Of a DNA stretch of 64,000 bases, positions 29,801 through 54,100 are shown in pieces. The stretch covers positions 40,906,501-40,970,500 of the forward strand of contig NC_134013.1 of the NCBI RefSeq assembly GCF_040712315.1, written 5' to 3'. The notes below the pieces were generated by a model. It saw only the letters and a program-made list of their open reading frames with translations, searched no databases and had not been told where the DNA came from. This DNA is from Castanea sativa (Eukaryota; Streptophyta; Magnoliopsida; Fagales; Fagaceae). The number at the start of each line of letters is the position of its first letter. The first letter of the stretch is position 1. Position numbers and translations under genes: made by a program.

Positions 29801-31990
29801 TAAAAGGAAAGATAGGAATAGTTAAGAAACCTAGAATTTCTTGTTCTTCACTTTTAGTTAACATATTTCCTTTGGTTAACATATTAATAGATTTAATAAC
29901 ATTACAACAAGAATCTCTACAACCAAATTTAACATTAGGAGAATTGGAAGTATCACTACAAGAGTGATAAGCCGAATCAAATGAGGAGGAGAAATCCTCT
30001 TCAAAGGAATCAATTAAAGTAGTAGAATCAAGAATTTGAAATAATTCTTTTTGATCATCATCATTAATGTTCAACATGTTCAATTTATTCTTTAATTTAC
30101 CAAGCTTTTGGTTACAGTCTTTACTGAAATGGTCAAATTTGCCACAGTTAAAGCATTTACCATTACCTGATCTTTGTTTATCATGCTTTTTAAATGCAGA
30201 TTTCTTTTTAGCATAAAAATCATTAGGTTTAACAAAATTGGTTCTGTATCTTTTATGCTTTTTATGGGAATAACTTCTGTAAACTTTATCATGTTTACTT
30301 TTTCCTTTTTGCCTGGAAGGGGCAATAGAAAGTAAACCATATTGTTCACAGAAATTACCCATTTCAGATTTAGATTTCTTTTTATTTTTAATTGTTGTTT
30401 TAACAGTTTTTCATCATTACACACACTAATTCCAAGTTTTTTAATAGTACTGAAAATATCACCATAGGTTAAATTATCATAGTCAATAGAATCACTTTTA
30501 CCAATTAATTCATTTTTTTCCTTATGAGCAAAGATAGGAGGCAGACCATCAATAAACCTCTCTTTCCAATAAGGCTTCGTGGAATCTTTTCGGAGCATCA
30601 CTCTAGAAATAAACACATCTTGGTACCATCTGTAACCAGACATAGTAGGACATCTCAAATTATTCAGATAATCAGAAATTCGAGATGAAATATTAGATGG
30701 AGTACCAACAAAATGTTTAAGAATAGTATAAACCAAAGTATTAACACCATCAAGAATACCTCGATTAATATTTTCATAAAAAATGGGCATACCATCATTA
30801 TCTCTCTTAACAACATGTTTAATAGATTCTCTGGATTCTTCTGTGAGATGCGAATCCCACCATCCTCGAAGAGTATTAGAAAAACCAGTAGCAAGCAAGT
30901 CAACAATATCAGGGTGATCAAGATCATTATGGTTGTTCATGTATGCAATATCAACCATAGACATGTGAGCCATTTTGTTAATAATTTCTTGTTCAGACAA
31001 ACCATCAATATTCCATTCATAAAGTTTTTTAGTAGAAACAGAAAATTGAGTTTGAAAAGATCTTTCTTCAAACTGTATATCAGGAGGAGTAGGTCTAGAA
31101 TACTAATTTTTTGTAAAAGACACGGGATTGGGTTTTCCAACAAATCTTTTAACTTCTGGTAAACCATCATCAAAAATATTTTTGTAAGAAACAGAAGATA
31201 TTGAGTCAGAATTTGTGTCTTCTTCAGAAACAATTTCTTTCTCATTTCTTGAAATAGCACAAGTAGCATTTTTTGAAGTAGAAGTCTCTTCAGGTTTGAC
31301 TTTCAAATCAGTTTTGGCATTTAAATCAACAAGAATTTTTTCAACCTTGTCAAGAGTTTTACTCTGAGAATTTTTAAAAGTAATTTTTTCTCTTTGACTG
31401 GGTAGATCAATCAAAGGTTTCTCAGGTTTTGAGGCAGTAGGTTTTTTAACAATTTTTTCTTCAATATGATCAAGCTGTTGACCAATAACATGCAAAGATT
31501 CATTAGTAAAATTTTTTTGTTCACTAACAATAGGAGTTTTATCATTAGCAATTTTGAAAGGGGAGGCCTTCACCTCAGCATTTTGGTGAGATATCAAAAC
31601 AGTTTCAAGGGGTGGATGACTAGACCGAACAACGGTTTTGTCTTCCTTTTTGAAATTTGATTTTTTTATTACATTCAAATGATTAGTATGAACATCATTT
31701 TTTGAAACATAATAATTTTCAAGATAATCAAAAAACAAAATATGTTTTCCCAACAAATTCATTTTTTCTTTCCATTTCCTCTTAACTTTATCTTTTTCAG
31801 ACTGAGCAAAAGTACTTTGGTAATATTTCCTTTTACTTCTATTTTTTGGAAGCATAAACTTATTATACAAAGCAACCATATCAATTTCAAAATCATTATT
31901 GACACGAGTTAAAACTCTGAATTGATTTTGGTAAGGAGGAGTTTCAATAGGAGGAAAATCAGATCCAGAAGGAGCATCAGAGTTTGCATC
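29800..31990 (-). pseudogene. EPRV copy B: coat protein, zinc knuckle and upstream linker
   Basis: The coat protein forms the particle and binds RNA. The upstream Lys/Glu/Ser-rich linker is at 31103-31879, the coat core at 30092-31000 and 30092-30362 in two frames, with LRGWWDSHLTEESRES and HFVGTPSNISSRISDYL. An intact CCHC knuckle, CFNCGKFDHFSKDC, lies at about 30112-30156. A stop after SRPTPPD at about 31101 and a frameshift near 30370 break it. The movement-protein part is missing: the copy ends near 31990-32013, head-to-head with copy C. Confidence 0.88.
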
Positions 31991-32026
31991 ATTTTCTTCT
32001 TCATTAGCATTCTTTCCTTGGCTAAT

Positions 32027-32274
32027 AGTGTTGTTGTGTCTTTCATATTCTGTCTGTGTCTATCTGACCTTGTGATACTTCGTTGTTATGTTCCTTCTTA
32101 CCGTCATTGGCGCCACCATAGCCGTAAATTGAAGTCCTAGATCCGAACAGTAAGGCCTATGAAGCCAGGAGAGCGTGAGGGCATGAGAGGAATAAGGTTG
32201 GTTGCGGTATGTGTTACGAAATGCAACGGTTGTGAGACAAAACATGATAATTGAGTGTTATAACTAAGATAGCT
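32027..32274 (+). promoter_or_regulatory. EPRV copy C: untranslated leader end
   Basis: Shared with the start of copy G (50275-50530 on the minus strand): both carry the GACCTTGTGATACTTC block and TGAAGTCC upstream of the first ORF. It contains TTGGCGCCACCATAGCC at about 32108-32124 (TTGGTGCCACC in G). No TGGTATCAGAGC-type tRNA-Met site is present in either copy. It ends at ATG 32275. Confidence 0.6.
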
Positions 32275-33294
32275 ATGGATAGGATGTGGAGATCCAAGTC
32301 CTCTATTAGCTCTAGGACTGGTTGTTCTCCTGATATTGTGAATGAAGAAGATCACACTATAGAAGAAAGTGAGTACCCTGATTTCAGAAAATGGAATATT
32401 CCAAAAGTTTCTACTAAATCTGTTTACAAACTCAGTTGGAAAGAAAATAATGTTTTCTCCGAATATATAGTTAGAACTATTGAACAAACTTTTTCTATCT
32501 CTAGAACTCATGAAAAATGTTGCTTATTTTCCTAAAAAGATATTAATGATTTCATGACTAAGAAACTTAAATATTTACATATTGGTATTGTTCAAGTTGC
32601 TGTTAAACCTTTAACTAGAAAAGGTATTAATGCATCTGTTCTCATGTGTTTACGTGATGCTAGATTTAAAAGATTTAAAAGATTTAATGATAGCATTCTT
32701 GGTATGATTACTGCTTCTTTATATGATGATCCTGTTTTCTTTGATTGTTATCTTGATCTCACTCTTGCTTTGGATGATCCTAATATTGTTAAAGCTTTGA
32801 CATTGAACATATTGACATCTGGTTATGATATGGTTGAAGGTAGTAAGCCTTTTACTCTTATTTACCGTATTTATTACCGATTGCTTGATTCTCAGTTAAT
32901 TCCTCGTGCTAGAGGAAGAGATCCTGCAGGTAAGATTATGTTAATTCAATGTTCAACCCCTGATGCTAAGATCCAAGTCCACAAAATGATTCAATGGCAA
33001 GATATAATTCTTCCCAAAGAATGGACGGTGGAACGTGAAACTCCACCTGTTAAATCTGTTTTTGATGAACTCAATCTTACTAATATTCAACAATATGCTG
33101 ATGGTACTGTTAAAATTTGTTTTGGTGAAAATAAACCTTTGAGGATCAACGAAGGAAGACCTTCCTTTGCTGGATCTAAAAGTTTTAGAGATCATGATAT
33201 TGACGAGTTTTTGAAAAAGAATTTTGAAAAACCAGACTTAAGGCTAAAAGGAGTTGCGAGCAACAACTCTCAAGTTAGCACTGCTTTTTATTGA
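32275..33294 (+). pseudogene. EPRV copy C: 30K-type movement protein
   Basis: Would modify plasmodesmata for cell-to-cell movement. The first ORF starts at ATG 32275 (a frame open from 32251) and stops at 32535. The second, 32554-33294, carries the family core: LHIGIVQVAVKPLTRKG, then CLRDARF, DSILGMITASLYDDPVFFDC and LTLNILTSGYDM. These match the caulimovirid movement protein of the 30K superfamily. One stop (TAA near 32535) separates the parts and a TGA ends it at 33294. The copy cannot make a full protein. Confidence 0.85.
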
Positions 33295-34240
33295 ACTAGA
33301 GCTGAATCTCCCTCTAATATTAGCAAAAATGCTAATGAAGAAGAAGATGATGCAAAATCTGATGCTCATTCTAGATCTGACTTTCCACCTATTGAAACCC
33401 CTATTCACTACAATCAATTACGAGTTTTAACTCGTGTCAATAATGATTTTGAAATTGATATGGTTGCTTTGTATAATGAGTTTATGCTTGCAAAAAATAG
33501 AATTAAAAGGAAATATTACCAAAGTACTTTTGCTTAGTTTGAAAAAGATAGAGTTAAGAGGAAATGGAAAGAAAAAATGATTTTGATGGGAAAACATATT
33601 TTGTTTTTTGATTACCTTGAAAATTATTATGTTTCAAAAGATAAAGTTCATACTAATCATTTGAACGTAATAAAAAAATCAAATTTTGAAAAGGAAGACA
33701 AAACCATTGTTCGGTCTAGTCATCCTCCCCTTGAAACTGTTTTGATAACTCACCAAAAGGCTGAGGTGAAGGCCTCCCCTTTCAAAATTGCTGATGAAAA
33801 ACTCCTATTGTTAGTATTATTGAACAAAACAATTTTACTAATGAATCTTTGCATATTATTGGCCAACAGCTTTACCGTATTGAAGAAAAGGTTGTTGAAA
33901 ACCCTGTTGTTTTAAAACCTAAGAAGCCTTTGATTGATCTACCCAGTCAAAGAGAAAAACTAGTTTTCAAAACCTCTCAGAGTAAGACTCTTGATAAGGT
34001 TGAAAAGATGCTTGCTGATTTGAATGCTAAAACTGATTCAAAAATCAGAACTGAAGAAACTTCTAGTTCAAAAAATGCTGCTTGTGCTATTTCAAGAAAT
34101 GAGAAAGAAATTGTTTCTGAAGAAAACACATATTCTGACTCATTATCTTCTGTTTCTTACAAAAATTTTTTTGATGATAGTCTACCAGAAGTTAAGAGAT
34201 TTGTTGGAAAACCCAATCCTATGTCTTTTACAAAAAACTA
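33295..34240 (+). pseudogene. EPRV copy C: linker between movement and coat protein
   Basis: A Lys/Glu/Ser-rich, probably disordered stretch in the polyprotein. Open pieces are 33577-33915 and 33849-34241. Stops at 33292-33294, 33536-33538 and 34239-34241, and a frameshift near 33800, break it. The same region is in B (31103-31879) and G (48450-49300). Confidence 0.75.
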
Positions 34241-35300
34241 GTATTCAAAACCTACTTCTCTTGATATACAGTTTGAAGAAAGATCTTTTCAAACTCAATT
34301 TTCTGTTTCCGCTGAAAAACTTTATGAATGGAATATTGATGGTTTGTCTGAACAAGAAATTATTAACAAAATGGCTCATATGTCTATGGTTGCTATTGCT
34401 TACTTGCATAATCATAATGACCTTGATCACCCTGTTATTGTTGATTTTCTTTCTACTGGGTTTTCTAGTACTCTTCGAGGATGGTGGGACTCACATCTCA
34501 CAGAAGAATCTAGAGAATCTATTAAACATGCTGTTAAAAGAGATAATGATGGTATGCCTATTTTTGATGAAAATATTAATCAAGGTATTCCTGATGGTGT
34601 TAATACTTTGGTTTATATTATTCTTAAACATTTTGTTGGTACTCCATCTAATATTCCATCTCAAATTTCTGATTATTTGAATAATTTGAGATGTCCTACT
34701 GTGTCTGATTACAGATGGTACCAAGATGTGTTTATTTCTAGAGTAATGCTCTGGAAAGATTCTACGAAGCCTTATTGGAAAGAGAGGTTTATTGATAGTT
34801 TGCCTCCTATCTTTGCTCATAAGGTAAAACAAGAATTAATTGGTAAAAATGATTCTATTGATTATGATAATTTAACATATGGTGATATTTTCAGCACTAT
34901 TAAAAAACTTGGAATCAACATGTGTAATGATGAAAAATTGTTAAAACAACAATTAAAAAATAAAAAGAAAGCTAAATATGAAATGGGTAATTTCTGTGAA
35001 CAATATGGTTTACCTCCTATTGCCTCTTCTAGGCAAAAAGGAAAAAGCAAACATGATAAAGTTTCCAAAAGTTATTCCCATAAAAAACATAAAAGATACA
35101 AAAACAACTTTTTTAAACCCAATGATTTTTATGCTAAAAAGAAATCTGCTTTTAAGAAGCATGATAAACAAAGATCAGGTAAAGGTAAGTGCTTTTACTG
35201 TGGCAAATTTGGCCATTTCAGTAAAGACTATAACCAAAAGCTTGGTAAATTGAAAGATAAATTGAATTTGTTAAACATTAATGATGATGATCAAAATGAA
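34241..35300 (+). pseudogene. EPRV copy C: coat protein and zinc knuckle
   Basis: Part of the longest viral ORF of the window (34344-36344, 666 residues). The coat core shows GFSSTLRGWWDSHLTEES, VNTLVYIILKHFVGTPSNI and YWKERFIDSLPPIFAHK. The knuckle reads CFYCGKFGHFSKDY: the fourth metal ligand is Tyr instead of Cys, so it is defective. It is followed by an acidic Ser/Asp tail (about residues 330-350) and a coiled-coil-like Lys/Glu stretch. Confidence 0.9.
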
Positions 35301-36344
35301 CTGTTTCAAATACTTGATTCTACTCCTTTGTCTAATTCATTTGAAGAGGATTTCTCCTCTTCATCTGACTCTGATTATCACTCTTTCAGTGATACTTTTA
35401 AACTTGGATGTAGAAACTCATGTTGTAATATTATAAAATCTGTTAATATGTTAACCAAAGGAAATATGTTAACTAAAAGTGAAGAACAAGAAAATTTGTT
35501 GTTAACCATAATCAGTAAAATTAGTAACCCTGAGTTGCAAAAAGAATATCATGACAAGTTTAAGAAAAACTTAACAAAAGATGAAAAGTCTAAAAAACTT
35601 AAATCTAAAATAAGTTTTGAAGAAACTTTGGAAAGATTTAATAAAAATAAATCCAAAGAAGTAACTGTTATCGACCTTCAACATGAAATTACTATTGTTA
35701 AACAAGAAATAATCCAGCTGAAAAATGATATGAAAACTGTTAAACATGATAATCTTGATCTTAAACAAGAAGTGTTAATTCTCAAACTTGATAAAAAAAT
35801 GGATAAACATCAGTCTGATAGTGATGAGCAACAAGATGGAGATGAATCCACTCAACAAGCTCCTCCTTCTGGTAATGTTTCTGATAATGATTTGATTAAT
35901 TCGATTGATAATCAACTTGCTCTTGTTAAACATATTATGCCTCCAAAATGTTTCACTAAAGTCAAGATTGTTGTTTCACATGATTATGCTTTCAAAATTG
36001 TTGCTATGATTGATTCTGGTGTTGATGTTAACTGTATCCAAGAAGGATTGATCCTTTCTAAATATTTTGAAAAATCAACTGAAAGATTGGTTTATGCTAA
36101 TGGTACTCAAATGAAAATTAAATATGAGTTGAGCAATGCTCATGTTTGCCATGATAATGTTTGCTTTAAAATACCTTCCGTGCTTGTTGAAAATATGACT
36201 GATAAAGTGATACTTGGTTTGCCTTTTATTGCTACTCTGTATCCCTTCCTTGCTGAGGATGATGGAATTACGACTGATCCTTTTGGACATAAAGTAAAAT
36301 TTAAATTCTGTTCAAAATATGAAACCATATTGATGATGCTTTAG
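35301..36344 (+). pseudogene. EPRV copy C: coat C-terminal coil and aspartic protease
   Basis: Same frame as the coat protein. 35620-35830 encodes a heptad-like coil (Lys/Glu/Gln/Leu-rich). The protease has VAMIDSGVDVNC at about 36001-36036 (D-S-G active site present) and VILGLPFIATLYPF at about 36207-36248 (the usual G-L-P-F block). A frameshift near 36330 ends the ORF. Its role in the virus would be polyprotein cleavage. Confidence 0.87.
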
Positions 36345-36828
36345 TTAAACATCTTAACTTCCTTAAGCAAGAAGTTAGATACAAGAAAATTATTGAACGA
36401 CTTTCTGATAAATTATTGCAATCCAAAATTGATAGATTTCTGAAAATCTTGATGGATGATGATTGCTCTGATATTCCTAATACCTTTTGGTATAGGAAGA
36501 AACACATTGTTGACTTACCTCATGTAAAAGATTTAGTAAAAAGAATATCTTCACTAAAGACGATCCTATCCAAACGAATGCTGAATTTCAACAAGAAATT
36601 CTTCATATTAATCATAAACTTTTGACCGAGTCCTTAGAATGGACCAGATACCCTATCACCAATGACCAGGTCAAGTCTTTTCTCTACCCCAGTACTTTCG
36701 AAATTGATCATTACCATTCTAGAGTCTGTCACCTAGCACAACTAATACATATACTATGGATTTTGGAAAGGAATTTTCAAAATACTTTCATCACAAGATA
36801 TTTTATTATCTTTTTTCGTGCTTGGTAG
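36345..36828 (+). pseudogene. Type 2 junction region in copy C: RT first box then new sequence
   Basis: After the protease the RNA-type region begins as in type 1 (DIPNTFWYRKKHIVDLPH), up to a weak match to the first RT box (PIQTNAE). It then changes to sequence without RT motifs: KLLTESLEWTRYPITN and YHSRVCHLAQLIHILWILE. Copies E, F and G carry the same replacement. The frame ends at TAG 36826-36828, which in F is CAG and in G also TAG. Confidence 0.8.
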
Positions 36829-36867
36829 GCAAAAGAAAATATTAATACCACTAATAAGTGGAATATA

Positions 36868-38346
36868 ATGCCTTCTTTGGCAAAGAAGAAGAACAAGGGA
36901 AAAGTACCAGCAGAGGGCTATCCTCAAGACAAAAGGCGCCCAGCAGGTCAACCTTTTGTAATGCATGAAGGCGCGTCTTTTGGAACAAAATCCAATGGTG
37001 CAACATCCCTTCAGGAATTTTTCCCGGCAGAGGAGACATATTCTAGTGGTGATATCATAATTGCTTTACATGAAGTTTTGTCCAGAGAACTGCAATTCCA
37101 TAATGGAATCTTTTGTAAACTGCCAGATTCCATTAAATTCATTCTTGACAACCTTCAAGCTGCCTTCCTATTAAACCGTCATAAACTTTTCAAAAGAAGT
37201 ATGAGAGCACTTGAAATTCACCTTGTTAACCTAACTACTCAAAATGAAGCCTGCACAAGTCATCCTGCTGACCTTAGTGCTCAAATTGAGGCTTATGCCA
37301 ACTACCTTGTTGACTACCTTATTAACTCCAAGAGCCATCCTAATAAACCAAATATTGCAACCCTCATTAGTCAACTCTTTGGCAAAGAGGAAATCCATTC
37401 AATGGATTAAAAGACTATAATGGGTACTGATTATGCTAGACTGAGTCTTAAGACCCAATCTTTGCTAAGAAGTGTTGTTGCCAACTTGCCCCCAGAAGTA
37501 CAATCATGTATTTTTGAAAGCAAGGCTATGACCAATGATCTTAATCTTTGGCTCAAATATTTCAAAACTCTTGTTACAATCACTCCTGATCTTATTGAAC
37601 CTGATGGCCCCAGTAGTGCTTACATAAAAAAGAAGTGCGGAAAGTACTTTGGGAGTAGTCTTAGAGTTCATGAAATGGGCCATCCTTTCCCTGGCCTTTT
37701 GATCAATTATGAAGACGGCTCAGATGATGATCCCTCCTGGCTATCTCAAATGTTTGAATTTGGCTTTATTAGACTCATAAGATTAACGAGTCAGGCCCAG
37801 ATTAGCTAATTTCCTGATATTATTCAAAAAGCTGTTACAAATATTGAAAGTCCTTATGTTTCCATCCAATGTTGAAGCACTTTACCTAAATGGGAAAAGA
37901 ATAATTGGATGAATGTTCAACCTTCTAAGCATATTGTTCTCATTAATGGTTATACTCACCAAGGACAATGGTATGAAGGTCATTCTTATGTTTCATATAA
38001 ACGTCCTTAAACACTTGCTGAATGTTGGAGAAGTTATTTCAATAATCAGATTCTAGATGTCAGCCAAGAATTATGGAAAGATTACCACTTCTTTGGATGT
38101 ACAGATAGAATTTCTATTTTTGTAAATAAACTGTATGCTTCAGCTGTCCACCATCTTCAATGGACAAAACATGATGACCTAAGAATATTTCTCACAAGAG
38201 ATCCTGTTTATGAACCATTGTTTTATTGTGGCTTTTGCAACCAGTATGTTACTTATCATGAACATGATTGTGATGATGAATGGGATCCTTATCCAGCACG
38301 AGATCCCAATAATGGTTACCCATCTGATGCTTCCTCTACTAATTAA
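36868..38346 (+). pseudogene. Type 2 ORF, copy C (unassigned protein replacing RT-RNase H)
   Basis: Begins KKKNKGKVPAEG, basic and Pro-rich. Open at 36868-37410 and 37420-37809; later parts are broken by stops (about 37408, 37807, 38008). It contains a helical region (LPDSIKFILDNLQAAFLLN) followed by a repeat of about 12 residues built on LVNLTTQNEACTSH. The C-terminal half has HEMGHPFPGLLINYEDGSDD and ends with a Cys/His cluster and an acidic tail. A full-length counterpart is at 41990-43489. I know no matching family. Conservation in three copies suggests it was a real viral gene. Confidence 0.75.
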
Positions 38347-38739
38347 AGACCTCTATTTTTCCAGTCTGCATAAAGGCCAATTCCAAAAAATCTTTTCCCA
38401 AGAGAAATAATTACTATTTCTTTACCCCCTATTTCACTTCCTATTTCACCCATCAATGATGCTCTGGTTGACTACTTACTACAATATTCTACTTCTTTTT
38501 GACTTCTTTGGCTCCACTGACACTCCATCAATAACTATTGAAGTTCCTACTTTAATGATATATGATATATTCATGTCATGCCAAACTTTACAATATTCAC
38601 CTAAGGTGAAAATGTTCACTATTGCCTTACCTGTTACCTTTAATGATGTTCCTAAGACCCCTTTGTTGACTGCTTTTGGCAAGAATCGCCAAACTACTTT
38701 TGGCTTAAAAGTATGTTTTTTTTTGGGATAAGCTTCCTA

Positions 38740-39310
38740 TTTATGCACCCCTCACGAGTCTGGATTATGCGCCTCTGTTGCCCCTCACGGGTCCTGATAT
38801 GAAGAGTGAAAAATGTCACTATTCACTACTTTATTTACCTATATAAGGGGGTTGTCCCTTATTACAATTCAGAATTCTCTCTTAGAATCTCCTTTAGAAC
38901 TCTCTCTAGGACTTTCCTTAGATCAGAATATCTCACTGCTTCTTACAAAGCTTGTAACTAGAACCAGGACTAGCCTTCAATCCTTGTACTACTACCCCTT
39001 GCTATTGTTGTGCTCCTGTAACTACTGCAATCCTGTAACTACTGTAAGTGTTTTGAATCACTTTCAATAAACAATTCTGTTTTTAATATCTTTTGATCTA
39101 TTTTGATATAACTGCTTGGCTGGTTCTACCGCCTTATTTTCAATTACATTTACTTTGAATTATTTTGATATAACTGCTTGGCTGGTTCTACCACCTTACT
39201 TTCAATCATTATTTTGATATAACTGCTTGGCTGGGTCTACCACCATACTTTCAATCATAACTATTATATCTGTTGTGCTTCTGCCTTCTGCACTTTTGTC
39301 CGTCCCACAT
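38740..39310 (+). promoter_or_regulatory. EPRV copy C 3' module: promoter, poly(A) signal, tandem motif
   Basis: TATATAAGG at 38840-38848 and AATAAA at 39066-39071, 226 bp apart, bound a likely terminally redundant region. Upstream, the CCCCTCACG block is repeated (about 38747 and 38776). Downstream of AATAAA the block ATAACTGCTTGGCTGG followed by TCTACC repeats three times (about 39107, 39169, 39216), ending in a CTTCTGCCTTCTGC stretch. The same order occurs in the two minus-strand modules. Confidence 0.82.
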
Positions 39311-40016
39311 TAAAAATCTTTTGAAAATCGTTTTCCAAAAACCATAATATAGCAAAAGTTTGTGCAAGATAACAGACTCTAGAATAGTACTAATCAATCT
39401 TGGAGGTATTGAGATAGTGGAAAAGCTTGGTTAGGACATTGGTGGTAGGGTACCTAGCCCACTCAAAGGAGTTGGTCAAAAGTTTATGATGAATGAGAGG
39501 ACTAGGAATTCTTATTTGAAGTGCAACATACGTAGGACAATTTGTTGTAGAAATATTTTCACTAAAGTCTTTAACATAAGGTAAGTCAACAATATATTTC
39601 TTTCTATGCCAAAAAGCATTGGAAATATCAGAACAATCATCATTCCTCAAGATTTTCTGAAAATTATCAATTTTGGACCTTAATAATTTATTAGAAAGTT
39701 GTCCAACAATTTTCTTGTATCTAACTTCTTGCTTAAGGAAGTTGAGATGTTTAACTTTGGTATGAATAAGATTAAAAGCATCATAAGTTTCATACTTTGA
39801 ACAAAATTTAAATTTCACTTTCTGTCCAAAAGGATCAGTAGTAATACCATCATTTTCAACAAAGGAAGGATACAGAATAGCAATAAAAGGCAGACCAAGA
39901 ATCACTTTATCACTCATATTTTTAACAAGAACAGAAGGAATCTTGAAACAAACATCTTCATGGCAAATATGAGCATTACTTAATTCATATTTAATCTTCA
40001 TTTGAGTTCTGTCCGT
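39309..40016 (-). pseudogene. EPRV fragment E1: type 2 protease to junction region
   Basis: Minus strand; open at 39390-40001. Starts inside the protease (MKIKYELSNAHICHEDVC, ILGLPFIAILYPS) and continues into the type 2 sequence (LLTNSFEWARYPTTN). It is cut off before the type 2 ORF, where it meets the 3' end of copy C at about 39309. Its 5' end is fused to a type 1 fragment at about 40016. Confidence 0.82.
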
Positions 40017-41130
40017 GTAACTACAAGGCGAGGGGTTCCTCTCTCAAGTTCAGCATTTTTCTATACATAAAAAGCAGCACAAGACCAAGGGGACTTGCTA
40101 TTCCTAATCAGTTTTTTTCTTAAGTAAATCATTTATTTCATTTTTACAAAATTCAACAGTTTCAGCATTCATTTGAATAGGGCGAGCTTTAGTAGGAATA
40201 TCTGTTTCACTAAAATCTTTAATATAAGGCAAGTCAAACAATGTGCTTCTGCCTATGCCAAAAAGCGTTAGGTATATCAGAACAAACATCATTCATCAAT
40301 ATTTTCTGAAAATTATCGATTTTGGATTTTAATAATTTATCAGAAAGTTGTTCAACAATTTTCTTGTATCTAACTTCTTGCTTAAGGAAGATGAGATGTT
40401 TAACTTTAGCATGAATCAGATTAAAAGCATCATCATTATGGAATTCAAACTTTGAACAAAATTTAAACTTTACTTTCTGTCCAAAAGGATTAGTAGTAAT
40501 TCCATCATCTTCAACAAAGAAAGGATACAATGTAGCAATGAAGGGAAGTCCCAGTATCACTTTATCAGTCATGTTTTCAACAAGCACAGAGGGTATCTTA
40601 AAACAAACATTATCATGACAAATAGTAGCACTATTCAATTCATACTTGATTTTCATTTTAGTTCCATTAGCAGAAACCAATCTTTTAGTTGATTATTCAA
40701 AATATTTAGAAGGGATTAATCCTTCTTGAATACAATTAACATCAGCACTAGAATCTATCATAGTAACAGTTTTGAAAGCATAATCATGAGAAACAACAAT
40801 TTTGACTTTAGTAAACTATTTTGGAGGCACAATCTGTTTAACAAGAGAAAGTTGATTATCAATTAAATTGATCAAATCATTGTTAGAAACATTACCAGAA
40901 GGAGGAGCTTGTTGAGTGGATTCATCTCCATCTTGATGCTCATCACTATCAGACTAATGTTTATCCATTTTTTTTTATCAAGTTTAAGAAATAACACTTC
41001 TTGTTTAAGATCTAGATTATCATGTTTAACAGTTTTCATATCGTTTTTTAACTGGATTATTTCTTGTTTAATAGTAGCAATTTCATGTTGAAGGTCGTTA
41101 ATAGTTACTTCTTTGGATTTATTTTTATTA
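40017..41130 (-). pseudogene. EPRV fragment E2: type 1 coat tail, protease and RT start
   Basis: Minus strand. Covers the coiled coat tail (about 40900-41130), the protease with its active-site region (about 40700-40800), 40234-40680 (ILGLPFIATLYPF) and the start of RT (KARPIQMNAE and RNSKSPWSCAAFYV at about 40060-40200). Here RT continues past the point where type 2 diverges, so it is type 1. It breaks off within RT at 40017 and is joined to E1. Frameshifts occur near 40245 and 40110. Confidence 0.82.
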
Positions 41131-41212
41131 AATCCCTTTGGTAATTCAAAAATATTTCCTTGGCTGTTTTGAATTATTTTGAAATTAAGACTTTAGTTAC
41201 CTCGGAGAAACA

Positions 41213-41957
41213 TATTTGCCATGAATATGTTTGTTTCAAGATTCCTTCTATGCTTGTTAAAAATATGAGTGATAAAGTGATTCTTGGTTTGCCTTTTATT
41301 GCTACTCTGTATCCTTTCTTTGTTGAAAATGATGGTATTACTACTGATCCTTTTGGACAGAAAGTGAAATTTAAATTTTGTTCAAAGTATGAAACTTATG
41401 ATGCTTTTACTCTTATTCATACCAAAGTTAAACATCTCAACTTCCTTAAGCAAGAAGTTAGATACAAGAAAATTGTTGGACAATTTTCTGATAAATTATT
41501 AAGATCCAAAATTGATAATTTTCAAAAAATCTTGAGGAATGATGATTGTTCTGATATTTCCAATGCTTTTTGGCATAGAAAGAAATATATTTTTGACTTA
41601 CCTTATGTTAAAGACTTTAGTGAAAATATTTCTACAGCAAATTGTCCTACGTATGTTGCACTTCAAATAAGAATTCCTAGTCCTCTCATTCATCATAAAC
41701 TTTTGACCAACTCCTTCGAGTGGGCCAGGTACCCTACCACCAATGTCCTAACCAAGCATTTCCACTATCTCAATACCTCCAAGATTGATTATTACCATTT
41801 TAGAGTCTGTTATCTTGCACAAACAATTGCTATATTATGGTTTTTGGAAAACAATTTTCAAAAGATTTTTAATGTTTATCCTTACCCTATTAAATTACCC
41901 AATACTAATAAATTATTCACCATTGCAACCTGTTTTACTATCTTCCCTTTTGCATGG
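41213..41957 (+). pseudogene. EPRV copy F: protease and type 2 junction region
   Basis: Starts abruptly inside the protease at about 41213 (HEYVCFKIPSMLVKN, VILGLPFIATLYPF), without the D-S-G site. It runs open through DISNAFWHRKKYIFDLPYVK and the type 2 replacement (LLTNSFEWARYPTTN, YLAQTIAILWFLE) to AW-Q at 41958-41960. Part of the 483-residue ORF 41160-42611. This copy shows that the type 2 ORF is in the same frame as the protease region. Confidence 0.85.
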
Positions 41958-43489
41958 CAGGAAAGAGAAAATATTATTAATACCACTAGTAAGTGGAATA
42001 AAACGCCTTCTTCAGCAGAGAAGAAGAACAAGGGGAAAGTACCGGCAGAGGGCTATCCTCAAGACAAAAGGCTCCCAGTGGGACAACCTTTTGTAATGCA
42101 TGAAGGCGCATCTTCTGGAACAAAATCTAGTGGTGCAACATCCCTTCAGGAATTTGTCTCGACAGAGGTGACATATTCCAATGGTGATATAATAATAACC
42201 TTACAGGAAGTATTGTCCAGAGAATTGCAATTCCATAATGGAATCTATAGTGAATTACCAGATTCCATCAAATTCATTCTTGATAACCTGCAAGCTGCTT
42301 TCTTATTAAACCGCAATACCCTTCTCAAGAAGACTATGAGAGCACTCAAAACTCACCTTGTTAACCTTACTGCTCAAAATGAGGCTTGCACAAGTCATCT
42401 TGCTGACCTTACTACTCAAAATGAGGCTTATGCCGACTGCCTTGTTGACTACTTTGTTAACTCCAAGGCCCATAGGAGCCAACCTAATAAACCAAATATT
42501 GCAACCCTCATTAGTCAACTCTTTGGCAAAGAGGAAATCCATTCAATGGATAAAAAGACTATAATGGGTACTGAGTATGCCAGATTGAGTCTTAAGCCCA
42601 ATCTTTGCTAAAAAGTGTTGTTGCCAACTTGCCTACAGAAGTACAATCTTGTATTTTTGAAAGCAACGCTATGACCAAAGATTCGGACCTTTGGTTCAGA
42701 TGTTTCAAAACTCTTGTTACAATCGCCCCTGATCTTGTTCACTTAAATGGTCCTGATAATGCTCAATACAGGGCAGAATGGGGAAAACACTTTGGGAGTA
42801 GTTTTAGAGTTCATGAAATAGGCCATCCTTTCCCCGGCCTTTTGATCAACTATGAAGATGGTTCAGATGATGATCCCTCCTAGCTATCTCAAATGTTTGA
42901 ATTTGGCTTTATTAGATTAATAAGATTAACGAATTATGCCCAGATCAGCCAATTTCCTGATATTATTCAAAAAGCTATTACAAATGTTGAAAGTCCTTAT
43001 GTTTCCATCCGATGTTGGAGCACTTTACCTAAATGGGAAAAGAATAATTGGATGAATGGTCAACCCTCTAAGCAACTTGTTCTCATTAATGGTTATACCC
43101 ACCAAGGACAATGGTATGAAGGTAACTCTTATGTTTCCTATAAATGTCCTTATGCACTTGCTGGATGCTGGAGAAGTTATTTCAATAATCAAATTCTAGA
43201 TGTCAGCCAAGAATTTCGGAAAGATTACCACTTCTTTGGATGTATAGATAGAATTACTCTTTTTGTAAATAAACCGTATGCTTCAGCTGTTTGCCATCTA
43301 CAATGGACAAAACATGATGACCCAAGAATATTTCTCACAAGAGATCCGGTTTATGAACCATTGTTTTATTGTGATTTTTGCAACTAGTATGCCACTTATC
43401 ATGAACATGACTGTGATGATGAATGGGATCCTTATCCGGCAGGAGATCCCAATGATGGTTACCCATCTGATGCTCCCTCTACTAATTAA
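41958..43489 (+). pseudogene. Type 2 ORF, copy F (best preserved)
   Basis: About 500 residues from QERENIINTTSKWN to the TAA at 43487-43489. Parts: a basic Pro/Lys stretch (EKKNKGKVPAEG), a helical LPDSIKFILDNLQAAFLLN block, the AQNEACTSHLADLTTQNEA repeat, HEIGHPFPGLLINYEDGSDD, then an aromatic-rich half (WSTLPKWEKNNWMN, GQWYEGNSYVSYKCPY) and a C-terminal FYCDFC...H.H.C cluster with an acidic Asp/Pro tail. One frameshift near 42600 and two stops (about 42882 and 43387) break it. No family recognised; the cluster may bind zinc. It is in the place of RT and RNase H. Confidence 0.78.
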
Positions 43490-43740
43490 AGATATTCTAT
43501 TTGTCCGGTCTGCAAAACTTTCCTCGGGTGAAAATAGTTACTATTTCTTCACTCCCTATTTTTACTTATCAATGATGATTCCTTGACTACTTTTGATATC
43601 ACCATACGGCTTCCTTTATTGACTTCTTTCAATGTTGGAATATTTTCTCTATGGTGACTACCATTATCCTACATAAGAATAATGTCTCATTTATTGACCA
43701 CTTTCCACAACGGCCAATACTGCTACAGTATTTACCCAAG
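43490..43740 (+). other. EPRV copy F: 3' untranslated region, cut off
   Basis: Follows the type 2 ORF and shares a CTATTTCTTC-type stretch with the region after 38346 and the AACGGCCAATACTGC...ACCCAAGTTAAATC stretch with the minus module at 43741-44557. It ends before the TATA box, at a junction with an inverted module. Confidence 0.6.
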
Positions 43741-44557
43741 TTAAATCAAAATAATTATAATTGAAAGTAAGGCGATAGAACCAGTCAAACAGTTATATCA
43801 AAATAATTCAAAGTAAATGATAATTGAAATTAAGGTGGTAGAACCAGCCAAGCAGTTATATCAAAATAGATCAAAGATATTAAAACAAAAGTGTTTATTG
43901 AAAGTAATTCAAAACACTTACAGTAGTTACAGGGTTGCAGTAGTTACAAGATTACAATAATCAACAGGGATAGTAGTACAAGGCTTGAAGACTAGTCCTG
44001 GTTCTAGTTACAAGCTTTGTGGAAATAGTGAGATATTTTGATCTAAGGGAGGTCCTAAAGAGAGTTCTAAAGGAGATCCTAAGAGAGAATTCTGAATTGC
44101 AATAAGGGACAACTCCCCTTATATAGGTATAAAGTAGTGAATAGTGACATTTTTCACTATTCATATCAGGACCCGTGAGGGGCAACAGGGGCGCATAATT
44201 AGGACCCTTGTGGGGCAGCAGGGGTGCATAACCCGGAAGCTTATTAGGTTGGCTTTTGTGCCAAAAGTAGTTTGGAATGTTGTGCCAAAAGCATCAGCAG
44301 TAGCAAGTAAAGCAGTGGGAAAATGATTTAACTTGGGTGAATATTGTAGTAGTATTGGCCGTTATGCAAGCTAGACAAATAGTAAGACCATCATCATGCT
44401 CCTAGATTAGGAGTATTTTCTTCATCATGTCCAAACCAATCTTTTGGATAAGGTTAGGGGTATGGATCATAAGGACTTTCTGCAATAGAGCCTTCTTCTC
44501 TAATCTTTTTTTCGAGAAGAGCATACAGAGCTTCCTTGCGTAGATCATCATAAGAGG
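43741..44557 (-). promoter_or_regulatory. EPRV 3' module of a type 1 copy, with end of the type 1 ORF
   Basis: Minus strand: end of the type 1 downstream ORF (DDLRKEALYALLEKK, about 44510-44557), then the CCCCTCACGGGTCC block, CTATATAAGG at 44115-44124, AATAAA at about 43890-43895, and two copies of the GCTTGGCTGG or GTTTGACTGG motif. The upstream part of its genome is missing; a junction at about 44557 follows. Confidence 0.78.
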
Positions 44558-44706
44558 GGGAAGAAAAGGGGGAAGGACGACGGCGCAGAAGGCGGAAGCA
44601 CAACAGATATAATAGTTATGATTGAAAGTAAGGCGGTAGATTCAGCCAAGCAGTTATATCAAAATAATGATTGAAAGTAAGACGGTAGAACTAGCCAAGC
44701 AGTTAT
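44558..44706 (-). promoter_or_regulatory. EPRV copy G: truncated tail of a 3' module
   Basis: Only the part downstream of the poly(A) signal: two GCTTGGCTRGTTCTACC-like or GCTTGGCTGAATCTACC repeats and the CTTCCGCCTTCTGCGCC stretch. Joined directly to the middle of the type 2 ORF of copy G, so TATA box and poly(A) signal are lost. Confidence 0.65.
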
Positions 44707-45470
44707 ACTCTCATAGTCTTCTTGAGAAGGGTATTGCAGTTTAATAAGAAAGCAGCTTGCAGGTTATCAAGAATGAATTTGATGGAATCTGGTAATTCAT
44801 TATAGATTCCCTATATGGAATTGCAATTCTCTGGACAATACTTCCTGTGAGGTTATTATTATATCACCACTAGAATATGTCACCTCTGTCGGGACAAATT
44901 CCTGAAGGGATGTTACACCACTGGATTTTGTTCCAGAAGATGCGCCTTCATGCATTACAAAAGGTTGTCCTGCTGTGAGCCTTTTGTCTTGAGGATTGCC
45001 CTCTGCCGGTGCTTTCCCCTTGTTCTTCTTCACTGCTGAAGAAGGCATTTTATTCCACTTACTAGTGGTATTAATAATATTTTCTCTTTCCTACCATGCA
45101 AAAGGGAAGATAGTAAAACAGGTTGCAATGGTGACTAATTTATTAGCATAGGGTAATTTAATAGGGTAAGGATAAACATTAAAAATCGTTTGAAAATCGT
45201 ATTCCAAAAACCATAATATGGCAATAGTTTGTGCAAGATAACAGACTCTAGAATGGTAATAATCAATCTTGGAGGTATTGAGATAGTGGAAAAGCTTGGT
45301 TAGGACATTGGTGGTAGGGTACCTGGCCCACTTGAAGGAGTTGGTCAAAATTTTATGATGAATGAAAGGACTAGGAATTCTTATTTGAAGTGCAACATAC
45401 ATAGGAAAATTTGTTGTAGAAATATTTTCACTAAAGTCTTTAACATAAGGTAAGTCAACAATATATTTCT
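44707..45470 (-). pseudogene. EPRV copy G: type 2 junction region and start of type 2 ORF
   Basis: Minus strand. The type 2 ORF starts at 45048 (MPSSAVKKNKGK) and is open to 44800; it is cut at about 44707 after the LLKKTMRA block. Upstream, the replacement sequence (LLTNSFKWARYPTTN, YLAQTIAILWFLE) is in the protease ORF 45091-46044, which ends at TAG 45091-45093, the site that is CAG in F. Confidence 0.82.
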
Positions 45471-46700
45471 TTCTAAGCCAAAAAGCATTGGAAATATCAG
45501 AACAATCATCATTCCTCAAGATTTTTTGAAAATTATCAATTTTGGATCTTAATAATTTATCCGAAAGTTGTCCAACAATTTTCTTGTATCTAACTTCTTT
45601 CTTAAGGAAGTTGAGATGTTTAACTTTGGCATGAATAAGATTAAAAGCATCATAAGTTTCATATATTGAACAAAATTTAAATTTCACTTTCTGTCCAAAA
45701 GGATCAGTAGTAATACCATCATTTTCAACAAAGAAAGGATACAGAGTAGCAATAAAAGGCAGACCAAGAATCACTTTATCAGTCATATTTTTAATAAGCA
45801 CAGAAGGAATCTTGAAACAAACATCTTCATTGAGAATATGAGCATTACTTAATTCATATTTAATCTTCATTTGAGTTCCATTAGCAAAAACCAATCTTTT
45901 AGTGGATTTTTTAAAATATTTGGAAAGAATCAAGTCTTCCCGGATACAATTTACATCAGTACCAGAATCAATCATAGCAACAGTTTTGAAAGCATAATCA
46001 TGTGAAACAACAATTTTGACTTTAGTAAACCATTTTGGAGGCATAATCTATTTAACAAGAGAAAGTTGATTATCAATTAAATTGATCAAATCATTGTCGA
46101 AAACATTACCAGAAGGAGGAGCTTGGTGAGTGGATTCATCTCCATCTTGATGCTTATCACTATCAGACTGATGTTTATCCTTTTTTTTTATCAAGTTTGG
46201 GAATTAACACTTCTTGTTTAAGATCAAGATTATCATGTTTAACAGTTTTCATATCATTTTTTAATTGGATTATTTCTTGTTTAACAGTAGCAATTTCATG
46301 TTGAAGGTCGTTAATAGTTACTTCTTTGGATTTATTTTTGTTAAATCTTTCCAAAGTTTCTTCAAAACTTATCTTAGATTTAGGGTCATATACCATTTCA
46401 TCTTTTGTTAAGTTTTGCTTAAACTTGTCAAGATATTCTTTTTGTAATTCAGGGTTACTAATTTTACTGATTATGGTTAACAACAAATTTTCTTGTTCTT
46501 CACTTTTAGTTAACATATTACCTTTGGTTAACATGTTAACAGATTTTATGGCATTATAACATGAGTTTCTACAATTAAGTTTAACATTAGGAGAATTGGA
46601 AGTATCACTACAGGAGTGATAAGCCGAATTAGATGAGGAGGAGAAATCCTCTTCAAATGAATCAGTTAAAGCAGTAGAATCAAGAATTTGAAATAATTCT
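45471..46700 (-). pseudogene. EPRV copy G: protease and coat-protein tail
   Basis: Minus strand. ORF 45091-46044 holds VAMIDSGTDVNC (active D-S-G, about 45950-45985) and VILGLPFIATLYPF. ORF 46175-46534 is the coiled coat tail (ATVKQEIIQLKNDMKTVKH). A frameshift in a T run near 46185 and a TAG near 46048 separate them. The part nearest the coat protein is interrupted by a solo LTR. Confidence 0.85.
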
Positions 46701-46710
46701 TTTTTATCAT

Positions 46711-47375
46711 TGATGGGGTACTGATTTTGCCTATCTCCAAGTCGTCCATAAAGGTCGTCCGTGGCCGGTTGGGAATTGTAAACACCCTTCGAAACCTACT
46801 TGCAGCTACCTCGTCCAGGTAAGAAGAGCTCTGGACGAGGTAGGCACCACCAGAAAATAGACACTCATCCAAAGCGCGGATAACCTCGTCCTGAAGGTGT
46901 GACTGTTAGACGAGGTAGCCTCTGCGCCTGTGCCGAAACATACTCGACTAAGGAATCCTAGGACGAGAGTATCATACTTAGAAAAATCTCCGAATATAAT
47001 GCGGTAATTCCTTATCCCACGCATAACTGCCAGGTATCCGTTGTGGAGACAAAAGCATAACTTCTAAACGGTTATGCAAGTTACGTTTGATTTCTACCTC
47101 TCCTTAAATCCAGGAGAAGTTCCAATTTTGGTAACCGCCTATAAGAACACTATATAAAGGCTGTTTCAGACAAGGCCAAGGTATGTTCATTTTACTCCAA
47201 AAAAGTGGGAACTCAGATAACATAGAGAGAAAAACTAACTTTGCCATCGGAGGGTTTTTGGCCGGCAGCCCCGGTCGCCTTTGATTCGCTTTTCTTTCTT
47301 TTTCAGGCCGCAGAGAGAACCAGTAGTCCTTTGAAGTCCGAAGCATCCAGCCTATTGATCTTCTTTGCATCATCA
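46711..47375 (+). repeat. Solo Gypsy LTR inserted in EPRV copy G
   Basis: 665 bp from TGATGGGGTACTG to TTTGCATCATCA, with perfect duplication ATCAT (46706-46710 and 47376-47380). Ends and the CTCGTCC/GGACGAG motifs relate it to the Tat LTRs at 10544 and 20922, but it is a different subfamily. TATA box CTATATAAAGG at about 47150-47160. It splits the sequence encoding the region after the zinc knuckle, so it postdates the virus insertion. Confidence 0.92.
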
Positions 47376-47380
47376 ATCAT

Positions 47381-48450
47381 CATCATTAATGTTCAACATG
47401 TTCAATTTATTCTTTAATTCACCAGGCTTTGGTTACAGTCTTTACTGAAATGGCCAAATTTGCCACAGTTAAAGCATTTACCTTTACCTGATCTTTGTTT
47501 ATCATGCTTTTTAAAAGCAGATTTCTTTTTAGCATAAAAATCATTAGGTTTAACAAAGTTTTTTCTGTATCTTTTATGCTTTTTATGGGAATGACTTTTG
47601 TAAACTTTATCATGTTTACTTTTTCCTTTTTGCTTGGAAGGGGCAATAGGAAGTAAACCATATTGTTCATAGAAATTATCCATTTCATATTTAGCTTTCT
47701 TTTTATTTTTTAATTGTTGTTTTAATAGTTTTTCATCATTAAACATGTTGATTCGAAATTTTTTAATAGTAATGAAAATATCTCCATAGGTTAAATTATC
47801 ATAGTCAATAGAATCATTTTTACCAATTAGTTCTTGTTTTATGTTATGAGCAAAGATAGGAGGCAGACCATCAATAAACCTCTCTTTCCAATAAGGCTTC
47901 ATGGAATCTTTTCGGAGCATTACTCTGGAAATAAACACATCTTGGTACCATCTGTAATCAGACATAGTAGGGCATCTCAATTTATTCAAATAATCAGAAA
48001 TTCGGGATGAAATATTAGATGGAGTACCAACAAAATGTTTGAGAATAGTATAAACCAAAGTATTAACACCATCAGGAATGCCACGATTAATATTTTCATA
48101 AAAAATAGGCATACCATCATTATCTCTTTTAACAGCATGTTTAATAGACTCTCTGGATTCTTCTATGAGATGTGAGTCCCACCAACCTTGAAGAGTACCA
48201 GAAAAACCAGTAGCAATCAAATCAACAACATCAGGGTGATCAAGATCATTATGGTTGTTCATGTAGGCAATACCAACCACAGACATGTGAGCCATTTTGT
48301 TAATAATTTCTTGTTCAGACATGCCATCAATATTCCATTCATAAAGTTTTTCAGCAGAAATAGAAAGTTGAGTTTGAAAAGATCTTTCTTCAAATTGTAT
48401 ATTGGGAGGAGTAGGTCTAGAATACCAGTTTTTTGTAAAAGACATGGGAT
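47381..48450 (-). pseudogene. EPRV copy G: coat protein and zinc knuckle
   Basis: Minus strand, within ORF 47414-48658. Coat core blocks TGFSGTLQGWWDSHLIEES, VNTLVYTILKHFVGTPSNI and YWKERFIDGLPPIFAH, then an intact knuckle CFNCGKFGHFSKDC at about 47432-47475. The frame runs out near 47414. It is among the least damaged coat genes of the cluster. Confidence 0.9.
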
Positions 48451-49300
48451 TTGGTTTTCCAACAAATCTTTTAACTTCTGGTAAACCATCGTCAAAAACA
48501 TTTTTGTAAGAAACAGAAGATAATGAGTCAGAATCTGTGTCTTCTTCAGAAACAATTTCTTTCTCATTTCTTAAAATAATACAAGCAACATTTGTTGAAG
48601 TAGAAGTCTCTTCAGGTTTGACTTTCAAATCAGTTTTGGCATTTAAATCAGCAAGCATTTTTTCAACCTTATCAAGAGTTTTACTCTAAGAGGATTTGAA
48701 AATTATTTTTTCTCTTGACTGGGTAAATCAATCAAAGGTTTCTCAGGTTTCGAAACAGCAGTTTTTTCAACAATTGTTTCTTCAATACAGTCAAGCTGTT
48801 GACCAATAATATGCAAAGATTCATTAGTAAAATTGTTTTGTTCAATAATACTAACAATGGGAGTTTTGTCATCATCAATTTTAAAAGGGGAGGCCTTCAC
48901 CTCAGCCTTTTGGTGAGTTATCAAAACAGTTTCAAGGGGAGGATGACTAGACCGAACAATGGTTTTGTCTTCCTTTTTAAAATTTGATTTTTTTTATTAT
49001 GTTCAAATGATTTGTATGAACTTCATCTTTTGAAATATAATAAATTTTAAGGTAATCAAAAAACAAAATATGTTTTCCCATCAAATTCATTTTTTCTTTC
49101 CATTTCCTCTTAACTCTGTCTTTTTCAGACTGAGCAAAAGTACTTTGGTAATATTTCCTTTTACTTTTGTTTTTTGCAAGCATAAAATCATTATACAAAG
49201 CAACCATATCAATTTCCAAATCATTATTGACGCGAGTTAAAACTCTTAATTGATTGTAGTGAATAGGGGTTTCAATAGGTGGAAAGTCAGATCTAGAAGG
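48451..49300 (-). pseudogene. EPRV copy G: linker between movement and coat protein
   Basis: Minus strand: open pieces 48703-48924 and the ends of 47414-48658 and 48977-49729. Lys/Glu/Ser-rich, with KPEKPLIDLPSQ as in B and C. Broken by a stop near 48690 and a frameshift in an A/T run near 48985. Confidence 0.75.
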
Positions 49301-50269
49301 AGCATCAGATTTTGTAGCATCTTCTTCTTCATTAGGATTTTTGCTAATATCAGAGGGAGATTCTGCTCTAGTTGAATAAAAAGCAGTGCTAACTTGAGAG
49401 TTGTTGCTTGCAACTCCTTTTTGCCTTAATTCAGGTTTTTCAAAATTCTTTTTCAAAAACTCGTCAATATCATGATCTCTAAAACTTTTAGATCCAGCAA
49501 AGGAAGGTCTTCCTTCGTTGATCCTCAAAGGTTTATTTTCACCAAAACAAATTTTAACAGTACCCTCAACATATTGTTGAATATTAGTAAGATCGAGTTC
49601 ATCAAAAACAGGTTTAACAGGTGGAGTTTCACGTTCCAAAGTCCATTCTTTGGGAAGAATTATATTTTTCCATTGAATCATTTTAGGGACTTGGATCTTA
49701 GCATCAGGGGTTGAACATTGAATTAACATTGTCTTACCTGCAGGATCTCGTCCTCTAGCACGAGGAGTTAACTAAGAATCAAGCAATCGGTAATAAATAC
49801 GGTAAATAAGGGTAAAAGGCTTACTGCGTTCATCCATATCATAACCAGATGTCAATATGTTCAATGTCAAAGCTTTAACAATATTAGGATCATCCAAAGC
49901 AAGAGTGAGACCAGGATAACAATCAAAGAAAACAGGACCATCATATAAAGAAGCAGTAATCATACCAAGAATGCTATCATTAAATCTTTTCTTAGTCATG
50001 AAATCACTAATATTTTTTCTGGAAAATAAGCAACATTTTTCATGAGTTCTAGAGATAGAAAAAGTTTGTTCAACAGTTCTAACTCTATATTCAGAGAAAA
50101 CATTATTTTCTTTCCAACTGAGTTCGTAAATAGATTTAGTAGAAACTTTTGGAATATTCTATTTTTTGAAATCAGGGTACTCACTTTCTTCTACAGTGTG
50201 ATCTTCTTCATTCACAATATCAGGAGGACAGCCAGTCCTAGAGCTAACAGAGGAGTTGGATCTCCACAT
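49301..50269 (-). pseudogene. EPRV copy G: 30K-type movement protein
   Basis: Minus strand: pieces 48977-49729 (C-terminal part, MLIQCSTPDAKIQVPK, LRINEGRPSFAGSK), 49772-49999 (FNDSILGMITASLYDGPVFF, LTLNILTSGYDM) and an N-terminal region to about 50269. The LHIGIVQV core present in C is missing here: a deletion joins MTKK to RFNDS at about 49990. Stops near 49770 and 50160. Non-functional. Confidence 0.83.
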
Positions 50270-54095: not shown

Positions 54096-54100
54096 CCTCT

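What the first reader, a model, noticed from the sequence alone, without database searches (positions are those of the whole stretch)
36345..45470. Two pararetrovirus genome types share both ends but differ in the middle
Type 1 (B, E2) has protease, RT, RNase H and a Trp-rich ORF. Type 2 (C, F, G, E1) is the same up to the first RT box, then changes to an unrelated conserved sequence and ORF with no RT or RNase H. The change lies at the same place in at least three copies, so it is not a private deletion. Both types end in the same promoter and poly(A) module. This is what a bipartite or helper-dependent virus would leave behind. Bipartite organisation has been proposed for some endogenous florendoviruses; whether this is that group is inference.
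Basis: partly seen in the sequence, partly recalled or inferred. Interest (0 to 1): 0.88.

Follow-up and report, generated by a model that had tools for sequence, protein, structure and literature searches.

The report
Polymerase-lacking partner of a plant pararetrovirus
A cluster of ancient virus copies in a plant chromosome holds two forms of the same virus, one with and one without the copying enzyme; the form without it shows signs of having been kept by selection, so it was probably copied by its partner, as was proposed in 2014 for other plant viruses of this family.

Summary
The two-type observation is mostly right. Six caulimovirid copies in this nest cross the first RT box: B and D are type 1 (RT continues), C, E1, F and G type 2. 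The 3' module (TATA, AATAAA signal 224 bp on) is shared by B, E2 and C. Corrections: type 2 sequence after the box contains an RT remnant, so is not unrelated; B has lost its protease active site by a private deletion; E2 holds only the tail of the Trp-rich ORF.

Evidence favours a replicating, helper-dependent or bipartite component over a dead rearrangement. Between type 2 lineages C and E1/G, protease and type 2 ORF show purifying selection; the RT remnant drifted at amino-acid level yet kept its frame (no stops, four of four internal indels in threes). Synonymous divergence of C and G rises from 0.06 (MP) to 0.44 (PR), suggesting recombination; MP shows no selection.

This resembles component B of bipartite florendoviruses (Geering 2014), but type 1 keeps its coat gene and the type 2 protein shows no similarity to the type 1 3' ORF.

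The parts
26160..32014 (-). Copy B, type 1: CP, PR without active site, RT, RNase H, Trp-rich 3' ORF, 3' module; cut before MP
   Evidence: self-comparison; Pfam; map
28788..29300 (-). RT region of copy B
   Evidence: RVT_1 2.3e-15 on 28788-28985; 28989-29300 only 0.11
28107..28784 (-). End of RT and RNase H of copy B
   Evidence: RT_RNaseH_2 9.7e-22
26914..27582 (-). Trp-rich 3' ORF of type 1 (223-codon open piece)
   Evidence: no Pfam match, no PDB match
26160..26660 (-). 3' module of B: TATATAAG from 26489, AATAAA signal from 26265
40023..41134 (-). Copy D, type 1: PR plus start of RT; fused at its 3' side to F
   Evidence: 94% to B over 197 bp in the RT window
32026..39224 (+). Copy C, type 2, the only one running from leader and MP to the 3' module
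32275..33291 (+). MP of copy C (interrupted)
   Evidence: PF01107, 6.8e-18 on 32536-33291
33295..36341 (+). CP (DUF7746, coat domain, zinc knuckle) and PR of copy C, with a frameshift in CP
   Evidence: on 34344-36344: PF24925 6.5e-13, PF22909 4.3e-08, zf-CCHC 0.0014 (below cut-off), RVP 0.021 (below cut-off); pieces
36514..36825 (+). First RT box and RT remnant of copy C; open, neutral in amino acids, in phase with the type 2 ORF (but out of phase with PR in this copy)
36829..38343 (+). Type 2 ORF of copy C (open pieces 36829-37407, 37411-37806, 38011-38343)
   Evidence: purifying selection versus E1
38671..39224 (+). 3' module of C: TATATAAG at 38840, AATAAA signal at 39064
39307..40009 (-). 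Copy F, type 2 fragment (PR to RT remnant)
41211..43586 (+). Copy E1, type 2: one frame open from PR through remnant into the type 2 ORF (41145-42608), then its rest
43739..44660 (-). E2: end of type 1 3' ORF plus 3' module (TATATAAG from 44125, AATAAA signal from 43901)
44708..50526 (-). Copy G, type 2: leader, MP, CP, PR, RT remnant, start of type 2 ORF
46711..47375 (-). Insert inside copy G
   Evidence: no match of 100 bp or more to other copies
25519..26124 (+). Copy A: CP fragment, type unknown
   Evidence: 92.2-93.6% to B, C and G

Best explanation
Type 2 is the fossil of a caulimovirid genome component that lost its reverse transcriptase and RNase H and was copied in trans by a type 1 partner. 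It kept a leader, MP-CP-PR and the promoter/poly(A) module. A deletion inside RT left a remnant that joins the polyprotein to a type 2-specific C-terminal protein. Shown here: the two structures, the RT remnant, purifying selection on CP, PR and the type 2 ORF but not on the remnant's amino acids, an open frame across the remnant, and unequal divergence along the genome. Inferred: that type 1 RT copied the type 2 RNA through the shared ends, that template switching homogenised the 5' part, and that the type 2 ORF was made as a C-terminal extension (one codon is TAG in C and G, CAG in E1).
For: Junction shared by 4 of 4 type 2 copies crossing it. RT remnant: 0 of 1000 shuffles reach the score in C, G, E1 or F (the last three near-identical). 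Type 2 ORF, C versus E1, 474 aligned codons (4 left out for stops): dN/dS 0.38, 0 of 500 neutral simulations as low (simulation mean 0.67); in each of its three pieces the reading frame has a lower dN/dS than the other two frames. PR, C versus G: 0.18, 0 of 500. CP 0.28-0.30, 1-2 of 500 (0.28-0.48). RT remnant: dN/dS 0.74 and 0.69, as neutral (353 and 290 of 500 as low), but 0 stops in 84-85 codons (17 of 500 simulations in each comparison) and, in the three-way alignment, 4 of 4 internal indels between C and E1/G are multiples of three (3, 6, 51, 3). The type 2 ORF is in phase with the remnant in 3 of 3 copies that hold both, and E1 reads through. dS between C and G: MP 0.058 (0.024-0.099), PR 0.435 (0.265-0.680). 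CP, 1.9 kb: B-C 91.6, B-G 91.9, C-G 91.8%, so type 1 is no further from type 2 than the type 2 copies from each other. Module spacing identical in B, E2, C. D (type 1) and F (type 2) lie fused on one strand.
Against: One locus only; genome-wide counts missing. Only C links MP to the 3' module in type 2; G, E1 and F are cut. No type 1 copy here retains MP, and B lacks the protease active site. MP shows no detectable selection between C and G (dN/dS 1.10 over 86 codons; 0.67, interval 0.35-1.43). The third type 2 piece has dN/dS 0.46 with an interval to 1.04, and stops in the type 2 ORF (4) are not significantly fewer than simulated (mean 6.7; 90 of 500 as few). In C the remnant is out of phase with PR (two frameshifts), and in C and G a TAG lies between remnant and type 2 ORF, so the extension is not proven. 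The remnant indels are one lineage comparison. No tRNA-Met primer site was found in the copies.
Confidence: 0.7

Rival explanations
1. Type 2 is a passive defective genome: a deletion derivative copied by type 1 for a while, with no role of its own.
For: It shares the 3' module with type 1 and carries an RT remnant, which is how a defective derivative would look; MP shows no selection between C and G.
Against: Purifying selection on PR, CP and the type 2-specific ORF and an open frame across the remnant suggest that its proteins mattered; the type 2 ORF is not a leftover of the type 1 3' ORF by the comparisons made.
Confidence: 0.14
2. Type 2 copies descend from one rearranged chromosomal locus by later host duplication.
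For: All copies lie in one nest; E1, F and G are 95-97% alike and show dN/dS of 0.68-1.61, as decaying duplicates would.
Against: C against E1 has dN/dS 0.38 over the type 2 ORF, which decay after duplication does not give; C and E1/F/G are 81-82% alike at the PR end.
Confidence: 0.07
3. Type 2 is a self-sufficient virus whose RT lies in the stretch that copy C lacks (between 3' module and leader).
For: The circular genome of type 2 is not covered there.
Against: That place would be leader, and C already measures about 7.2 kb; the remnant shows that RT was lost at its usual place.
Confidence: 0.05
4. Assembly error or chance private deletions.
For: The nest is rearranged (head-to-head B/C, fusions D/F and G/E2).
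Against: Same junction in 4 of 4 copies although C differs from the others by 18-19% at the PR end.
Confidence: 0.04

Closest known systems
Bipartite florendoviruses, component B (Vitis vinifera B and D virus, Oryza sativa B virus, Sorghum bicolor virus; Geering 2014, PMC4241990)
   Same: MP, CP and AP present, RT missing, an extra C-terminal part, ends shared with an RT-bearing component (paper: intergenic >90% identity; here 90.3 and 92.8% for B-C and E2-C), mixed A/B insertions.
   Different: The paper's extension is homologous to ORF2 of component A; here no similarity was found between type 2 ORF pieces and type 1 3' ORF pieces (best of 12 pairs: 12 of 300 shuffles). Here C and G have a stop between remnant and extension. 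The paper's MP criterion (>87%) is untestable, as type 1 has no MP here.
Bipartite florendoviruses, component A
   Same: RT, RNase H and a separate downstream ORF.
   Different: Component A in Vitis has CP partly or wholly deleted; type 1 copy B keeps CP.
Monopartite florendoviruses (7.2-8.5 kb; ORF1 MP-CP-AP-RT-RH1, ORF2 45-58 kDa; Geering 2014)
   Same: CP-PR-RT-RNase H order of type 1 with a downstream ORF in another frame.
   Different: No MP is left in type 1 here; ORF2 homology untested.
Wendovirus (de Tomas and Vicient 2022, PMC9794742, passages)
   Same: A 3' ORF without known homologues.
   Different: Wendoviruses have four ORFs, coat zinc finger before MP, and two protease domains; here MP comes before CP and one protease region was seen.

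Membership tests
Caulimoviridae (endogenous) | 30K movement protein, caulimovirid coat domain, RT and RNase H | tested here: met
   Pfam MP 6.8e-18, Caulimovir_coat_dom 4.3e-08 (C), RVT_1 2.3e-15, RNase H 9.7e-22 (B); spread over two copies
Florendovirus | RT-RH1 within the florendovirus clade | not testable with these tools
Florendovirus | ORF1 order MP-CP-AP-RT-RH1 in one polyprotein | tested here: inconclusive
   MP-CP-PR in C and G, CP-PR-RT-RH in B, in open pieces broken by stops and frameshifts; no copy has all
Florendovirus | ORF2 homologous to florendovirus ORF2 | not tested
   no ORF2 reference; no Pfam match for the Trp-rich ORF
Bipartite florendovirus | component B lacks RT and carries MP, CP, AP | tested here: met
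   copies C and G; protease by weak Pfam matches and homology between copies
Bipartite florendovirus | component B C-terminal extension homologous to ORF2 of component A | tested here: not met
   no significant similarity in 12 piece-by-piece comparisons or one BLASTP; remote homology not excluded, both AlphaFold models unusable
Bipartite florendovirus | component A lacks CP | tested here: not met
   B keeps CP, 91.6% to C over 1.9 kb
Bipartite florendovirus | near-identical intergenic regions and compound insertions | tested here: met
   90.3 and 92.8%; D-F fusion
Bipartite florendovirus | many independent copies of each component in the genome | not testable with these tools
   The genome search not answered (16 tries)
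Wendovirus | two aspartic protease domains | tested here: inconclusive
   only one weak retropepsin region per copy, below cut-off

The most novel reading that the evidence does not exclude
Type 2 was a satellite pararetrovirus rather than half of a divided genome: its helper (type 1) kept CP, PR, RT and RNase H and needed nothing from it, while type 2 had lost RT, carried a selected gene of its own unrelated to the helper's 3' ORF, and kept an RT remnant only as an open linker. That would be a helper-dependent retroelement virus with a private gene.
Probability: 0.25. Interest if true: 0.75.

Novelty: new variant of a known kind. Interest (0 to 1): 0.52.

Why it matters
Geering 2014 calls bipartite genomes unique among viral retroelements and argues for them from domain complementarity, shared ends and compound insertions. 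Codon-level selection, free drift of the RT remnant under a kept frame, and a gradient of synonymous divergence along the genome are further tests that can be applied to other such fossils. They bear on whether the RT-less form was a living component; whether its partner was complete would separate a bipartite virus from a virus-satellite pair.

Tried and rejected
PDB by sequence: three pieces, nothing convincing (best 0.04, a glucanase). AlphaFold: type 2 C-terminal piece pLDDT 29, Trp-rich ORF 42; too poor for a fold search.

RNase H remnant at the end of the RT remnant: suggested by C only (9, 38 and 49 of 1000 shuffles with the end fixed, under three scorings), not by G or E1 (722-952 of 1000); not claimed. 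One search tested the same by DNA and protein and gave nothing firm; its E1 protein stretch was in the wrong frame. Type 2 ORF as diverged type 1 3' ORF: best of 12 pairs 12 of 300 shuffles, not significant after 12 tests. tRNA-Met primer site (motif recalled): none in the copies; the exact match lies in the neighbouring LTR element. TA repeats of 5 or more units: none within 25.5-50.5 kb; one at 50921, about 400 bp beyond G. A PR C-B comparison was in the wrong frame (dN/dS 1.02) and is replaced (0.06). Pairwise indel counts gave 4 of 5 (C/G) and 3 of 4 (C/E1) for the remnant; I put the odd 1- and 4-base gaps down to stretches that I cut out of phase; the three-way alignment gave 4 of 4 internal.

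Papers: Geering 2014 PMC4241990 (abstract, sections 6, 7, 10, 24 and part 1 of 12); Vassilieff 2023 PMC10377300 (abstract, sections 5, 7, 24, passages); CAULIFINDER PMC9719215 (abstract, section 23, passages); Diop 2018 PMC5766536 (abstract, section 5, passages); de Tomas 2022 PMC9794742 (passages). The sugar beet report of bipartite florendoviruses is known only from Vassilieff 2023; PMC8389469, tried for it, is not held.
Full report
What is there. Between about 25.5 and 50.5 kb the window holds a nest of decayed caulimovirid copies, beside what looks like a copia-type LTR element (51-57 kb, named by eye), so the DNA is a plant chromosome (inference). Self-comparison and window-by-window BLAST give: A (+, CP fragment), B (-, type 1), C (+, type 2), F (-, type 2 fragment), D (-, type 1 fragment), E1 (+, type 2), E2 (-, type 1 tail) and G (-, type 2, with an insert). 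Pfam names MP, coat, RT and RNase H; the zinc knuckle passes its cut-off in B and the protease matches stay below theirs. The type 2 ORF pieces and the Trp-rich ORF match no Pfam family.

The junction. Six copies cross the first RT box. B and D go on as RT (D for about 200 bp); C, E1, F and G do not. The type 2 sequence is not foreign from there on: it holds a short stretch similar to type 1 RT about 40 residues further on. In C the score is 63 against a best of 41 in 1000 shuffles; in G, E1 and F it also beats all 1000, narrowly (49-55 against 46-51), and these three are near-identical. So type 2 most likely arose from an RT-bearing ancestor by loss inside RT. Beyond that stretch similarity to type 1 fades; an RNase H remnant is hinted at in C only and not claimed.

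Was type 2 alive? C and E1/F/G are separate type 2 lineages (81-82% at the PR end; 85-92% in the type 2 ORF). Between them PR (dN/dS 0.18, C-G) and type 2 ORF (0.38, C-E1) changed less in protein than neutral simulations (0 of 500 each; CP 1-2 of 500). The RT remnant changed as neutral sequence does (0.69-0.74; 290-353 of 500 simulations as low), yet it has no stop in its frame (17 of 500 simulations) and its four internal indels are all in threes, while the type 2 ORF downstream lies in the same phase in three of three copies that hold both. The simple reading is a linker that must stay open so that the type 2 protein is made as the end of the polyprotein. E1 is open through the join (488 codons); C and G have TAG where E1 has CAG. 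C-to-T change at a CHG site after integration could explain this, but that is inference. In C two frameshifts separate PR from the remnant, so the phase PR-remnant is seen in E1, F and G but not in C. E1 against G shows no selection in the type 2 ORF (0.97, 94 codons), as expected of post-integration decay, and these two with F may be host duplicates.

Ends and recombination. The 3' module is shared by B, E2 and C, with a 224-bp distance from TATA to AATAAA signal in all three. Between the type 2 copies C and G, dS rises from 0.058 in MP through 0.18-0.24 in CP and the stretch before PR to 0.435 in PR (bootstrap intervals of MP and PR do not overlap); between C and E1 it is 0.28, 0.32 and 0.14 in the three type 2 ORF pieces. 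In CP, B is as close to C and G as these are to each other. One time of divergence explains this poorly; exchange of the 5' part among genomes that replicated together explains it, though stronger constraint on synonymous sites in MP is not excluded. D and F, one type 1 and one type 2, lie fused on one strand, as compound insertions would.

Against. All this is one locus. Type 2 has one copy that reaches from leader to module. B lacks MP and, by a private deletion, the protease active site; D has that region. MP gives no sign of selection between C and G (1.10; 0.67, 0.35-1.43), which a recently shared MP that then decayed would explain, but which is no support. The third type 2 ORF piece alone is not significantly below 1 (0.46, 0.24-1.04), and stops in the whole type 2 ORF are not significantly fewer than simulated (4 against a mean of 6.7, 90 of 500 as few).

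What is known. Geering et al. 2014 (PMC4241990) describe components A and B of florendoviruses with a closely similar layout, and the 2023 review (PMC10377300) adds sugar beet. Type 2 corresponds to component B. Two stated features were tested and not met: component A lacks CP, and the B extension is homologous to ORF2. The second could fail through divergence, which the paper itself notes for rice and sorghum. Florendovirus membership by RT tree could not be tested. Literature searches that answered: (20 listed of 15,760); none of the listed titles and abstract starts showed an RT-less caulimovirid outside florendoviruses, which is weak evidence since most subscription papers are not held.

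Verdict. A real two-type system; most likely an RT-less, trans-replicated component of a florendovirus-like virus; a variant of a known kind. Whether it was bipartite or a satellite turns on whether type 1 was complete, which this window cannot say.

Noticed in passing
29809-29836 (-): Copy B lacks about 0.56 kb (equivalent of C 35494-36051), taking away the protease active site; D, C and G retain that region.
   Followed up: yes
36826-36828 (+), 45091-45093 (-), 41958-41960 (+): TAG, TAG and CAG at the same codon between RT remnant and type 2 ORF in C, G and E1.
   Followed up: partly
38011-38343 (+): The end of the type 2 ORF has a possible zinc-binding pattern C-x2-C-x6-H-x-H-x-C (seen by eye).
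   Followed up: no
40005-40045 (-): Type 1 copy D ends inside RT and is joined on the same strand to type 2 copy F inside PR.
   Followed up: partly
44570-44800 (-): Copy G stops in the type 2 ORF at 44708 and E2 (repeats of the stretch after the poly(A) signal, type 1 tail, module) follows on the same strand.
   Followed up: partly
46711-47375: Insert in copy G with no match of 100 bp or more to other copies.
   Followed up: no
13554-13748 (+): RT-like match (38% to the RT of B), probably a Ty3/gypsy element.
   Followed up: no
51024-57190 (+): What looks like a Ty1/copia-type element (named by eye) with a tRNA-Met primer site at 51024.
   Followed up: no
16251-16780: Tandem array of about 90-bp units, 65-93% alike to the reference copy.
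   Followed up: no
23413-23724: Fold-back (85% identical to its own reverse complement), perhaps a small transposon.
   Followed up: no
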